DNA of 64,000 bases from Candidatus Gracilibacteria bacterium (GTDB lineage Bacteria > Patescibacteriota > Gracilibacteria > BD1-5 > UBA2023): positions 1 to 64,000 of the forward strand of contig JAQUAB010000005.1 in the NCBI GenBank assembly GCA_028687475.1. The letters run 5' to 3'. A program made the position numbers and the translations under genes. A model generated the notes under the pieces. That model worked only from the letters and a program-made list of their open reading frames with translations, made no database searches and was not told the DNA's origin. Below are positions 43,224 to 55,226 of this stretch, piece after piece (positions within the stretch are counted from its first letter, which is position 1; each line of letters opens with the position of its first letter).

Positions 43224-46200
43224 ATGCGAAAAAATATATTTCGTTTTTCCTTCAAAGAGCACCTTTCCGTATTTCTGATATTTTGTCTTCTTGTATCTCA
43301 GACGATTCAGGTTTCTTTTTTCGATCGTACTGAGGCTGCGGCTGATGATTATCGTGATCTCGTATCGATTGTGGTAGATCGTGATACATATGGGAAGCTC
43401 TCATCCAAAATAAAAAGATACAGTGAAGATATTCAGGGATATCTCGGAAATACACGCGTCTCGCTTTTTGTCGTTCAGCAAGATACGCCACCAGAAGCGA
43501 TCGCTGCTCAGAATGAGAAATTGTATTATGATGGAGATGGAAAAGACGGAATCACGAGTCTTGTCGGAACGGTTCTGATCGGAAATGTTCCTATTCCTGT
43601 AGTCCATCGTGATAGTGAATCTTTCCCGAGTTTGTATCCATATGTCGATTTCGATGAGAAACGATTCGTCTATAACCAGCATTCTCATACGTATCAGTAT
43701 GCTCCAGATGCATCTGAGAGTACTGATGTGGATATCTGGCATGGTGTGATCAATCCGAGTGTTGGACGATCTTGGCAAGGAGATTCTGATATAGAGAAAA
43801 TCAGCGAATTCCTCGATAAGACACATGATTTCTATACGAAAAGCGGAAAATTTGTTTCTTCCACACTTCCTCCGAGAGTTTTTTATTACGATGGATACAA
43901 TGAGAGTGCAGCGATTGTTCCGAAAAGCGTTTTCCAATATGATCTCTATATCAAGAATATTGAGAATTTTGTCTATAAACGATTCACGAAATATTTGCTC
44001 ACGGATATTGGAAATGCTATCTCGAACTACGATGCCACCCATTCTGATAAAGAGCTCGATGAATACATCGCTTCTCTTGGCTATCCGAAGGGAAGCGATA
44101 CACTCAGTGGAGAGTTGGTGAGTTCACTTCCTGATATTCAGACAGTTCAGCCAACATCAGCCTATATCAAGAAATTTTATGAGATTCTGAATAAGAAGAC
44201 CCTTTCGGATGAGCAACTTTTCGTTCATAATGCTGGAAGGTATACGAGCGGATCAACGGTTCGTGTCGATCAAGCGACCGTTCAGGGAACATATATGGAT
44301 GAGGTTGCTGCGAGTATACTCAAGGAAGGGAATACAGCACTAGAGCAAGCAATTGATAATCAGATAAATACTTCCGGCTATCCGAAAAAGGTAGTGATTT
44401 TTGATAGTATTAATTACAGGAATAATGGAGCACCCGATGCTTTTGGAACAAACACTTTTTCTGATAAAGTATACAATGGATATTTTTTCGGGAAAAAATC
44501 ATCTGAAATCACAAATCCAGACCAGTGTACTATTGCACGCTGATACTCTGGCACGACGACTGATTTTGGTCGTTCGGTTCTCGTGGAGGCAAATGTCGGC
44601 TATGATGTCAATGCAACACAATCTCATGTTGAGCTTCTTGCGGCTGATACCGAAGAATTGACAAGACTTCATCGAAATGCTTCTTATTCTTGTTTTGATA
44701 CAAGTAGTGGTTCTCCGAAGATGACTTCATATTGGGGAGGAAATACTATTCTGCGTGTCGCAGATGCTGGTTCTGATGCTGCGAATGTACTCAATACAGA
44801 CATTGACTCACAGATAAAATGATATTCGCTGCCAATTTTTTCTCTTCAAGGAATGAAAGAAACTCCGCGTTTTGCGAATCCCAGTCTTGCGGATTGTAGT
44901 GTCGATTCTTATCAGTACTCACTTCTTGAACCATATACATATACTATTACAGATGAATTTGGGAATTCTCGAACTATAAAATGGCCAACTGAATGGAATG
45001 GAACTTCAAAGGATCCTCGCTATAGTTGTCTGACACAACATAATTCTCTCACTTCTATCCCCAATCTTCCAAAAAGCCTTGCGGATTATGAATCGCAAAC
45101 ATGTTTTGTCGGAGGAGTTCATATTGATGGTACAAGTGTAAAATCTCTGGGGAATTATTGTTATTTCGCGGATGATTGAACAATCTATTCTCATATTCCA
45201 ACATTGATAGAAAGCGCTTCAGGATATACAGATATTACGCACTATGAAGATCGGTATTATCATACGATTCCATCTCTCTGGAAACATATATCACCCACAG
45301 ATGAAGAAATCGCGGCCGCAACTACCAATGGTGTCACACCATCAACTCCAGTAGATATCAAACGGAGTGTAGAATTTCTCACTGCAAAAGGAAATATCGC
45401 TCGATTCGAATATCCAGATTTTTTCCAATCTCCTGGAAAAGATGTCGCAACCGTACGAGCATGGCTCAAGGATCTCTCAGAAAAGCAGTGGAATGCAGTG
45501 ATTGCGAAAGAAAATGCGACAACACTTTCTGCGTATGAACAAGAAGCGAACGCAAAAGTTGCATCAACTCCTCTTCCGTCCACTCCGATTGATTGGAATT
45601 CCCTTATTTCGGACGATGCTATCAATAAAATAATCCAAGCACAGAACTGGCTTCATCCAGATATCACTCAGAAAGCAAAAAATGCGATTGAAACATCTCT
45701 CTCATACTCTCACCAGTATGGAAGTGATATCACGAAAAATCCACCATCAATTCCAGAAATGGGTTCTGGGTATGATATTGCTTATCTCGGACTTTCATCA
45801 CTTGCTCCACTCAATACCAGTTTTTCTGCATCCGATACTCTCGAGACCGATTATGCGACTACGCTTGCAGAGATCCAAGCGTTGAATATGGGTGAAGATG
45901 GGGTTGCATCTCCAACGAGTGACTATCAGGCAAGTGCGAAATGTGGACCTCCAGAAGGGGTGATGATTTTCCAATGGCCAAGTGCTATCATGTGTTGGAT
46001 TGCATCTTTATTTCCGCCGAGAATCAGCGGTGGTTCGTGTGGGGGGAGTACTATAGGTGCAACGGATAATACTCGATCTTCGACATCACCGAGCAAAGAA
46101 ATACAGAATGATACTGAGAAAATGAAAGCATACTATGATGCAGCGAAACTCGTCTACAATATTCCAAAAACAGCGATCGGAGTGAATGAGTCTTCCACTG

Positions 46201-49200
46201 TTGAGTATGATTTTATCACCAAAGATAATGCACATATCGAGTTGCCGATAGGTTCCACGGTGAAGCTCGAAATCATCACTCTTGAATCTCAGGGAAAGAC
46301 TATTTCTCCAACTTCCGCGACAGGATATCTCGAGATTGCACCTGCACAGAGTCCGTACTCGAACCTCGGATGATCATTTGTGATTCTCTCACACGATAAA
46401 CTCCTCAAATCTACTCTTCGGGCAACTATTTCTATCCCGCTTCCAGATGGGACGACATACACATCTGTTTCTGATAATCTGAATTTCCGTGTCAGTGATG
46501 AGTCGATCGATATTTTTCCGACTGTAGAATGATCAGCAATGGGAACCATCGATACGACGCTCGCAAGTCCAGTGAAGCTCAGTTTTGCACCGAAGACTTC
46601 AACGGGTCTTGTCCTCAAAGACGAGTTCCCCTATACACTTGATATCTACGACTCTTTCGATGATTCTCTCATCGAGTCTGGGATTACGATTCCGAATAAT
46701 GATTATACCATCTCATACAACTATACGAAAAAGATTGGGACATATCATTTTGTGATTCGTGATGCTCTCGGTCGTTATGGTGACACGACGTTGTCCGTTC
46801 GTTCTGGTCCCATAGCGAAAGCTACTTTTACTCCTGTATCTTCCGCACTTATCGTTGGTTCAGATTCTCTCGGAGTACTTCGTCTCACAGACAAGCTCGG
46901 GAATCTCCTCTCTCCAGAGCTGCATAGTATCAACATCACAGCAAAATGAGGATATATCATCGATTCAGAATGAACACATGTCAGTGAACTCAATCTGGAT
47001 TCGATTGATTCCGAATTGATTCTCTCTTATGGGTCTTCCACTGCAGGAAAGCTCACACTCTCGATCAGTATTGATGGAGTGATTCAGACCGAGACAGCTA
47101 TCGATATTTTCCCAACAGCGCGAGTAGTATTCGAGCGTTCATCGCAGCCAGTAGTTGCGGGATCACCGATTACTGCACACATCAAGGTGCTTGATGGAAA
47201 CGGAAATATGATTTCTGGATTCTCGTCAGTGGCCGATATAACTCTTCCAGAAGCGGCTGGATATTTCGCAAGTGGGACAACCGTCGAGATCAAGTCAGGA
47301 CAAAGCGCTGACTTCACTTTCGTCCCTGGTCGTGTGGCAGGAGAACATATGCTGACACTCGACATTCCTGGAGTTGGAACTATTTCGGACATTTCATTCA
47401 CGATTGCCGCAGGTGCTCCTATGTATATGAATGCGAGTTATTCGGATACGACATTCTCTTTTGTCCTTCGTGACCGTTATGGGAATCTCTCTCCGAGAAA
47501 CATGACTGCTACGATGACTCGAGATACTGATGCATCGCAGACGGTTGCATTCTCGGGTGGAGTGTATTCACAGACGCGCAAGACTGGATTCTATAAGATG
47601 CAAGCTCCAGATATTGCGAAAAATACGCTCACGTATTCTGATGCAAGCGGTTCTTATACGCTCACTGGTGTGACGTATGCTTCGCTCTATGTTCCACCGA
47701 CACAGACAGATTTTTCATTTCTTCCTGACTACAATGCACGATATACCGTCCTCGCAGGGAATTCATTCCTTCGCCAAGGAGAACAGATTCTCTACGATGT
47801 GACTCCAGGTGCATCGTCGAGTCTCGCGGTGAGTACACTTCTCGATTCTCCATATACCACGAATACACTTCTTTCGGTTATTCCATGATGATGATTTTCT
47901 TTCGGACAATCGATCGATACCGCGGTCACAGCAGGAATCTCTCTCGAGAAAAATACACTCGTTCTCACAGCGCGTGACGATGTCTCTCATAAAGAAGTCG
48001 GTCGTGTAGGATATCCAGTGTTGAATCCTGACCTTGATATTTGTACAGAGAATCTTGTTTCTGATTCGACGTGTGATTCGTATTTCGAAAAGTCTCATAT
48101 TCGACTCATAGCGTTCAGTGGTTCTGAATATCAATCTACGGTTACGAAGGGTTCTCTTGCTCTCGGCACCAAGACTGCGAACCTGCTCCAGTATCGAAAT
48201 GGACAATGATTCACACTCATGGGTGGTGTGACGCTCGTTCCAGAGGCATCTCTGTCATCGAGACATCTCGAAATATCTGTGAAATACGATGATCAAATAA
48301 TTGCTCGTCTGATTGTTGCAACTGATGTGAATGCGAGTGTCCTTCAATCCAGTGATATCACATCATCTACCGTTTCGACTCCGATTCTCCAGAATCGTGA
48401 TAGTTCCATGTCTGTGCTAGAGAACTATGTGACAGAATTCACTCCGAATATTCATGGATATAGTGTCGTTGCACCAGATTCGACACAGACACTCGATGAG
48501 AAAAAAATCGGGCCGAATCATATCGATTCACTCGGGTCACTCTCAGAATTGCCAGGAGTCGGATGGAGAGATCAGAATCGTCTTCTTCTTTCCTATAGTG
48601 CTGGTGATACCGTCGGAGAAGCATCTCGTTGGTTCCATACGTATACCTATGTGAATCTCGGAGATCCAGTGGCTCATGTCGACCATGGTGCTGTAGGAAC
48701 CGAACAAGAGGGAATCGATCGTACGATTGGTACGCAGATTGCATCGAGTGCACATGGTGCTATTCGGTCATACTATCACAAGGACATGAATCATGATGGA
48801 AATGAAGATATCGTGATTGTGTATACTGATGGATATATAGAACTACTCTTGAATATCAATGGCAAATTCCGTTCGAAGAAAATGATTGCGTCGGTTCCTG
48901 ATGTGGGCAATCGTTGAATATCAATTGGGGATTTCACAGGAGATGGATATGGTGATATCGTCGTACTCACTGCTGGATGATCATTCGTTCTGGTCGACAA
49001 TGATTCACGGAAACTGACCCGCACTTCGATCTCTCTCAGTGATACAATGTCTGTCGTAGGGCCGACTGGAATTACTCAGTTCCAAGTCTATGATATGGAT
49101 GCAGACAATCGTGATGACATCGTGTATCTGACAGAAATGGGAGAACTCGGTGTGCTCTATGGTACAGTAGAGAAGTGAAAATTCGTCCAAAATATTCTCG

Positions 49201-55200: not shown

Positions 55201-55226
55201 TGAATTTCTTCTACATGACGAAATAG
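43224..55226 (+). CDS. Giant surface protein, 4,000 residues
   Basis: One uninterrupted code-25 frame of 12,003 bases to TAG; I walked every TGA junction (about 37, including a TGA triplet at 47886) and met no TAA/TAG. N-terminus: signal anchor (LSVFLIFCLLVSQTIQVSFF, residues 15-34), then a domain with RDLVSIVVDRDTYGKL and TVLIGNVPIPVV reminiscent of gingipain-like (C25) lead regions. Residues about 1050-1500: Ig-like/filamin-type repeats. Residues about 1855-1985: FG-GAP/VCBS repeats (DMNHDGNEDIVIVYTDG, DFTGDGYGDIVVLTAG, DMDADNRDDIVYLTE). About 2270: calcium-type DADNNGTPDSVEN. About 2390-2520: Cys/Pro-rich stretch. About 2955-3010: Leu-Pro repeats (LPSLP, LPELP). About 3150-3250: coiled coil. 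Probably an adhesin or host-contact protein. ATG 43224 is preferred over GTG 43191. Confidence 0.9.

What the first reader, a model, noticed from the sequence alone, without database searches (positions are those of the whole stretch)
43224..55226. A 4,000-residue surface protein in a single 12-kb gene
Read with TGA = Gly, the frame has no stop for 12,003 bases; with the standard code it looks like about 20 unrelated pieces. It combines a signal anchor, Ig-like arrays, VCBS/FG-GAP repeats, a calcium-type motif, a Cys/Pro-rich stretch, a Leu-Pro repeat and a coiled coil. In a reduced CPR genome one gene of this size implies a central job, plausibly attachment to or predation on a host cell as known for some Absconditabacteria.
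Basis: partly seen in the sequence, partly recalled or inferred. Interest (0 to 1): 0.75.

Follow-up and report, generated by a model that had tools for sequence, protein, structure and literature searches.

The report
Class-wide giant surface protein of Gracilibacteria
This is a real, single 4,000-residue secreted protein that has been kept, with the same order of parts, in most members of a whole class of tiny host-dependent bacteria, and in some of them it is encoded together with grappling-hook (type IV pilus) genes, so it is probably a core piece of their cell-contact apparatus.

Summary
Read with TGA=Gly, 43224-55226 is one frame of 4,000 codons with 37 in-frame TGA; at those positions relatives carry Gly as often as opposite GGN codons. 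It is not an assembly accident: 37 other genomes, including single-contig ones, hold a collinear homologue closed at both ends (about 3,700-5,617 codons). 188 of 242 genomes of the class match; outside the class none of about 343 matches convincingly. dN/dS is about 0.06-0.18.

The protein has a cleavable-type Sec signal peptide rather than a signal anchor, a new N-terminal alpha/beta domain, Ig-like arrays, FG-GAP repeats, a Cys/Gly/Pro-rich block, and a highly conserved helical/Leu-Pro core. The N-domain and core match nothing in Pfam or PDB by sequence or fold. In seven standard-code (Peregrinibacteria-type) families the gene lies downstream of type IV pilus genes; some of those homologues carry S-layer-homology, invasin-type Ig and TSP3 domains. 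A second TGA-recoded family, probably Absconditabacteria, has it too.

Most likely it is a wall-associated giant adhesin or scaffold working with type IV pili at cell-cell contact. Surface location is well supported, the pilus link moderately; attachment or predation is inference. It is a new, defined family of the known kind 'CPR giant surface proteins'.

The parts
43224..55226 (+). Giant gene, 4,000 codons under code 25 (TGA=Gly), ATG start, stop 55224-55226; an alternative GTG start lies at 43191
   Evidence: homologues of the same length class
43224..43340 (+). Sec signal peptide (aa 1-39), hydrophobic core aa 12-30, AxA-type cleavage site in relatives
   Evidence: hydropathy scan; N-termini of homologues
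43341..44663 (+). Conserved N-terminal domain (aa 40-480), alpha/beta, family not in Pfam or PDB
   Evidence: found in f13 homologues
44664..46103 (+). Second part of the N-terminal region (aa 481-960), with conserved Cys 490, 558, 602, 646, 907, 924, 939
46101..48503 (+). Beta-rich repeat region (aa 960-1760) that aligns to the region of standard-code homologues holding Invasin_D3/Big_1 Ig-like arrays
   Evidence: no library hit in the window copy itself
48561..49193 (+). FG-GAP / integrin-type repeat block (aa 1780-1990), three DxDxDGxxD-type loops
   Evidence: Pfam FG-GAP_3, E 9.6e-10; block conserved in all groups
50241..50813 (+). Cys/Gly/Pro-rich block (aa 2340-2530), conserved Cys 2346, 2353, 2423, 2458, 2483, 2493, 2522
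51441..52073 (+). Core module: beta strand, long helical region, CxxC (aa 2890/2893), beta strands (aa 2740-2950)
   Evidence: most conserved part; divergent stand-alone copy in family f7
52074..52244 (+). Leu-Pro stretch (aa 2951-3007), proline positions nearly invariant across the class
52245..52523 (+). Post-Leu-Pro helix/strand segment (aa 3008-3100) with conserved Cys 3028 and PEWxxGD
52671..52973 (+). Predicted long helix / coiled coil (aa 3150-3250), matched only in the f1/f2 lineage
53226..53378 (+). Lone fourth FG-GAP-like loop (aa 3335-3385)
   Evidence: sequence DIDKDGDKD; block 3320-3420 collinear in standard-code homologues
53481..55223 (+). C-terminal beta-rich region (aa 3420-4000); no LPxTG or other recognised anchor at the end
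   Evidence: relatives carry TSP3 and SLH near the C-terminus
55317..56780 (+). EngA/Der GTPase, downstream neighbour; der neighbourhood kept in several close relatives
57865..59853 (+). FtsH protease, two genes downstream

Best explanation
The gene encodes a giant secreted protein that is a core part of the cell surface of this class. It is exported by Sec and held at the cell wall or S-layer, and it works as an adhesive or scaffolding arm together with the type IV pilus system where the cell contacts another cell. Shown: one intact, conserved, class-wide and essentially single-copy gene; a signal peptide and no later membrane span; adhesin-type and calcium-type repeats; SLH repeats in several standard-code homologues; linkage to a T2SSE/PilB-type ATPase, a T2SSF/PilC-type platform and prepilins in seven families. 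Inferred: wall attachment also in this species, a physical link with pili, and a role in binding a host or neighbour cell. The Ig-like arrays would be the stalk, the N-terminal domain and FG-GAP repeats the binding parts, and the helical/Leu-Pro core an assembly or anchoring module.
For: Class-wide conservation (188 of 242 genomes; core and N-domain absent outside the class). Collinear blocks in 17 standard-code loci and 9 loci of a second recoded family. 306 columns of the f1/f2 alignment with the commonest residue in at least 92% of sequences, and about 22 Cys kept. dN/dS about 0.06-0.18. Signal peptide only. FG-GAP; Invasin_D3, Big_1, TSP3 and SLH in homologues. Upstream T2SSE, T2SSF and N_methyl genes on the giant's strand. 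Own genome has T4P genes (11 N_methyl, 4 T2SSF matches). In Saccharibacteria T4P genes are essential for epibiotic growth and T4P are implicated in host adhesion (PMC10633639). Giant membrane proteins were proposed for host recognition and the fibrous coat in Vampirococcus (PMC8080830). PilY1, a Sec-exported soluble protein encoded with minor pilins, sits at the T4P tip in Myxococcus (PMC7541494).
Against: In the window's own lineage the giant is not next to T4P genes; its neighbours are der and ftsH. No SLH or other anchor is detected in the window protein. No PilY1 domain matched in 117 class genomes, but that search had no positive control. The N-domain and core have no known relatives, so their function is inferred only from position and conservation. 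No expression or localisation data were available.
Confidence: 0.5

Rival explanations
1. A structural coat protein: the giant forms or anchors the S-layer-like or fibrous envelope, with no specific binding partner, and the pilus operon link is only shared regulation or surface assembly.
For: SLH repeats and beta-repeat arrays in homologues; strict class-wide conservation of architecture, which is unusual for adhesins under diversifying pressure; fibrous coat reported in Vampirococcus (PMC8080830).
Against: One SLH unit per location rather than the usual three, none in the window copy; integrin- and invasin-type domains and the T4P operon fit contact functions better.
Confidence: 0.25
2. A secretion, pore or delivery device: the conserved core (strand, long helical region, amphipathic strands, Leu-Pro spike) oligomerises and inserts into or punctures the partner's envelope.
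For: The core is the most conserved and most widely kept part, present even as a stand-alone secreted protein in f7; the predicted topology is compatible with a helical-barrel or pore module.
Against: No fold match to any pore protein or toxin; modest model confidence (pLDDT 61, pTM 0.46); no toxin family hit.
Confidence: 0.12
3. A giant extracellular enzyme: the N-terminal alpha/beta domain is a protease- or hydrolase-like catalytic domain (the sequence motifs recalled gingipain/caspase-type folds) displayed on a long stalk.
For: Alpha/beta fold predicted with good confidence (pLDDT 81), with near-invariant W-H, D, R and E positions.
Against: No PDB fold hit at E<=0.001; caspase only at rank 32 with E 1.3; no Pfam or PDB profile hit; no conserved Cys-His dyad identified.
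Confidence: 0.1
4. An assembly artefact or frame coincidence: several genes joined by error and by reading TGA as sense.
For: The window comes from a 5-contig draft genome.
Against: 37 other genomes with closed collinear frames, including standard-code ones with no or at most two in-frame TGA; purifying selection; TGA sites behave as Gly.
Confidence: 0.01

Closest known systems
Giant membrane proteins of Ca. Vampirococcus lugosii (Absconditabacteria), 1,392-4,163 aa (PMC8080830)
   Same: Size, predicted surface location, integrin/PKD/DUF11-type domains, related lineage, TGA=Gly
Large extracellular proteins of Peribacteria/Peregrinibacteria (PMC4736985) and the high propensity for proteins over 5,000 aa in Peregrinibacteria (PMC11573180)
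   Same: Large, secreted, some cysteine-rich and FG-GAP-bearing; homologues of over 5,000 codons found here in f20, f26, f27, f29 would fall in the 'huge protein' count
   Different: No family, no domain order and no pilus link were described in the passages read
PilY1 (type IV pilus tip protein)
   Same: Sec-exported soluble protein with beta-propeller-type repeats, encoded with T4P genes in part of its range
   Different: About four times larger (from general knowledge of PilY1 size), no PilY1 domain detected, different N-domain, Ig-like arrays and a unique core; linked to the T4P motor/platform genes and prepilins, not to a typical minor-pilin cluster
Gram-negative giant repeat adhesins (LapA/RTX type) and sortase-anchored MSCRAMMs
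   Same: Very large secreted Ig-like repeat proteins with calcium-type motifs
   Different: No RTX repeats matched, no LPxTG; Sec signal peptide and a conserved non-repetitive core instead

Membership tests
CPR/Patescibacteria giant surface proteins (descriptive kind) | Single ORF over about 1,400 aa with predicted export | tested here: met
   4,000 codons, signal peptide
CPR/Patescibacteria giant surface proteins (descriptive kind) | Adhesion/interaction domains (Ig-like, integrin FG-GAP, PKD) | tested here: met
   FG-GAP_3 in the window copy; Invasin_D3, Big_1, SLH, TSP3 in homologues
CPR/Patescibacteria giant surface proteins (descriptive kind) | Surface location shown experimentally | not testable with these tools
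   No proteomics searchable here; PMC11452946 reports VCBS-repeat proteins of Gracilibacteria in a proteome, identity with this family unknown
PilY1 | PilY1 C-terminal domain (PF05567) | tested here: not met
   Not among the Pfam hits of the protein; 0 of 117 class genomes, though the control genomes were also negative
PilY1 | Type I signal peptide, no prepilin motif | tested here: met
PilY1 | Encoded with pilins / T4P genes | tested here: inconclusive
   Met in seven standard-code families, not in the window's own lineage
S-layer (SLH) proteins | SLH domains, usually three | tested here: inconclusive
   One SLH hit per tested stretch in Peregrinibacteria-type homologues, two places in L036 and L045; none in the window copy
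RTX / type I secreted adhesins | RTX nonapeptide repeats | tested here: not met
   No such Pfam hit
Sortase-anchored proteins | C-terminal LPxTG, hydrophobic stretch, basic tail | tested here: not met
   C-terminus ends ...IATVLYQVNFFYMTK
Gingipain/caspase-type peptidases (clan CD) | Fold and Cys-His catalytic dyad | tested here: not met
   No significant fold match, no profile match, no dyad identified

The most novel reading that the evidence does not exclude
The giant is the defining component of a class-specific contact machine: a type IV pilus-linked, wall-anchored giant with two protein domain families not seen before (N-domain and helical/Leu-Pro core). It would have been inherited from the common ancestor of Peregrinibacteria, BD1-5 Gracilibacteria and probably Absconditabacteria, reduced to the core alone in f7, and used to hold or open a partner cell.
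Probability: 0.25. Interest if true: 0.85.

Novelty: new variant of a known kind. Interest (0 to 1): 0.62.

Why it matters
How most CPR bacteria hold on to and feed from other cells is an open question. This gene is one of the largest single investments in a 1-Mb genome (over 1%). It is kept across a class that spans two genetic codes and combines two unknown conserved domains with adhesin-type arms. It gives a concrete, single-copy target for antibodies, expression of domains and proteomics, and a marker for the contact apparatus of Gracilibacteria and Peregrinibacteria. It also shows that gene callers using the standard code would shatter one of the largest and most conserved genes of these genomes.

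Tried and rejected
- Gingipain/caspase idea for the N-domain, from motif memory: no support by fold or profile; dropped to a rival.
- PDB profile hits of the core region (TRIM25, apolipoprotein A-I, E about 0.01) fall on the coiled-coil segment and look like composition matches; rejected.
- PilY1 family search gave nothing, but the control genomes also gave nothing, so it is weak evidence.
- T4P synteny in the window's lineage: a motif scan of flanks found none close to the giant; Pfam found prepilin motifs just downstream only in L055 (slightly below the curated cut-off) and L067.
- EngA used to spot recoded genomes outside the class in the phylum sample: none with many TGA among the listed matches, so no other code-25 lineage was recognised there; the second recoded family was found inside the class instead.
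- Literature searches for a description of this family found general statements about giant proteins but not this family; only open-access papers are held.
- f10 genomes: no match to the giant; their EngA has no in-frame TGA, so there is no sign of recoding.
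Full report
Observation. Translation of 43224-55226 with NCBI code 25 gives 4,000 residues and a single terminal stop; 37 codons are TGA. The window lies on contig C5 of a 1,056,170-base, 5-contig genome of about 96% completeness, and the aa 1-3000 query matches only this place in it. By my count, the 37 TGA cut the standard-code frame into 38 pieces, 19 of them 60 aa or longer. The reading of TGA as Gly was tested on the family: in 24 aligned f1/f2 homologues, residues opposite TGA are Gly in 40% of cases and opposite GGN in 42%, while Gly is not among the six commonest background residues; for the window's own 37 TGA the figure is 39%.

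One gene, not a join. A search of the class with aa 1-3000 found homologues in 188 of 242 genomes. Forty loci were pulled: in families f1 and f2 (TGA=Gly) the complete frames are about 4,000-4,440 codons with 6-248 in-frame TGA; in eleven standard-code families the complete frames are about 3,700-5,617 codons with no or at most two in-frame TGA. Block profiles made from f1/f2 hit the standard-code proteins in the same order. A further TGA-recoded family, f13, was first seen through weak matches with TGA inside; nine loci show the same order, seven of them closed frames of 3,934-4,596 codons with 103-266 TGA, three from single-contig genomes. In all, 30 loci and 7 are closed at both ends. The named search returned BD1-5 Gracilibacteria, including the complete chromosome CP042461.1 (4,177 codons), and Peregrinibacteria. 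A maximum-likelihood tree of 50 homologues has every tested family monophyletic at 100, f1+f2 at 93 and the three recoded families together at 90 under midpoint rooting, consistent with mainly vertical inheritance. dN/dS by the Nei-Gojobori method is about 0.06-0.18 in eight pairs; two of these pairs are the same two genomes fetched twice, and in several pairs dS is near saturation, so the ratio is approximate.

Anatomy. Residues 1-39 form a Sec-type signal peptide; the hydropathy scan gives only two other weak peaks, both inside conserved blocks. The N-terminal region (aa 38-960) was modelled with 39 sequences at pLDDT 81 and pTM 0.75: an alpha/beta domain followed by mixed regions. It has no PDB fold match at E<=0.001, no PDB profile match and no credible Pfam family in any of 39 members. 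FG-GAP repeats lie at aa 1854-1914 and around. The region aa 2215-3320 was modelled with 41 sequences at pLDDT 61 and pTM 0.46, with no fold match. Its most conserved part (aa 2795-3095) has invariant Cys and Pro positions across 41 sequences. In the f1/f2 alignment 306 columns have the commonest residue in at least 92% of sequences and about 22 cysteines are kept. The Ig-like character of aa 960-1760 rests on standard-code homologues, where Invasin_D3, Big_1 and GH2_C5-type domains are found, together with TSP3 calcium repeats and SLH units upstream of the FG-GAP block and near the C-terminus.

Range. The core profile A3 and the N-domain profile A4 were each run on 380 genomes of the phylum: 26 and 20 hits respectively inside the class, and outside the class (about 343 genomes) only one marginal A3 match of E 8e-4 on the Leu-Pro stretch. 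Within the class, f10 gave no match. f7 lacks the giant but has a secreted protein of about 1,011-1,075 aa between murB-like/ssb-like and dnaE-like genes (names by eye from the sequences); its profile hits the giants at the core, best E 3.7e-12. It is followed by further secreted-looking genes without Pfam hits. So the core is the most widely kept part.

Neighbourhood. In families f14, f20, f23, f24, f26, f27 and f29 the giant lies downstream of, and on the same strand as, T4P genes. The fullest stretches show a T2SSE ATPase (E 7.5e-130), a T2SSF platform (E 2.1e-57) and one to three prepilins (N_methyl); f14 has other genes in between, and in f29 only a prepilin-like gene was seen within the stretch. 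Small secreted helical proteins follow in several. In f1/f2 this order is gone; prepilin-like genes lie just downstream only in two loci, L055 (just under the Pfam cut-off) and L067. The window genome does hold T4P genes elsewhere. In f13 the giant is usually followed by a secreted protein of about 230-333 aa, often with a YCC motif.

How it most likely works. Export by Sec, signal cleavage and retention at the wall, then use of the long Ig-like and FG-GAP parts as a contact arm, in cooperation with type IV pili. Export and conservation are shown or directly read from sequence; wall retention is suggested by SLH units in some homologues; the pilus link rests on synteny in part of the class; binding of another cell is inference from domain types and from what is known of CPR biology: T4P genes are class I essential in the saccharibacterial epibiont S. 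epibionticum and T4P are implicated in host attachment (PMC10633639), and giant proteins were proposed for host recognition in Vampirococcus (PMC8080830).

What is known. Giant or huge proteins in this part of the tree were noted for Vampirococcus (PMC8080830), Peribacteria (PMC4736985), Peregrinibacteria as a phylum enriched in proteins over 5,000 aa (PMC11573180) and in a BD1-5 genome (PMC6851277). None of the passages read describes one conserved family, its two unknown domains or the pilus operon. I therefore file it as a new variant of a known kind, not as something categorically new. Its interest comes from the class-wide conservation, the unknown core and the testable pilus link.

Noticed in passing
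L091-L094 (family f7), e.g. L092:7799-16494: Operon of five secreted-looking proteins (about 1,015, 321, 274, 798 and 481 aa in L092) between murB-like/ssb-like genes and dnaE; the first is a stand-alone copy of the giant's core, the others have no Pfam hit.
   Followed up: partly
L201, L203-L205, L208, L209 (family f13), gene directly downstream of the giant: A secreted Cys-containing protein of about 230-333 aa, often with a YCC motif, follows the giant in most of these loci and may be a partner.
   Followed up: no
L040, L041, L048 (family f9), gene upstream of the giant: A conserved 1,325-1,798 aa protein precedes the giant in all three f9 loci; the copy scanned (L048) has no Pfam hit.
   Followed up: no
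L067:16728-19499: A 924-aa gene just downstream of the giant starts with a prepilin motif and carries a Listeria-Bacteroides repeat domain, an odd fusion.
   Followed up: no
window 29000-43000: Low-GC stretch (about 28-39% against about 42-45% around) with a phage-type integrase at 38493-39398 (-) and a tRNA gene at its right edge (42939-43011, -), just before the giant: looks like an integrated element.
   Followed up: no
window 60834-62204: A 456-aa gene with DUF6996, DUF6997 and DUF7226 domains in a second low-GC patch, 12 in-frame TGA.
   Followed up: no
window 55317-56780: EngA has no TGA in 487 codons while the giant has 37 in 4,000 and genes of the low-GC stretch have up to about 10 in 300: TGA use varies strongly between genes of one genome.
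   Followed up: no
window 48771-49178 and 53226-53378: Three FG-GAP-type loops close together and a lone fourth about 1,400 residues later, both conserved: possibly one propeller split by a long insertion.
   Followed up: no
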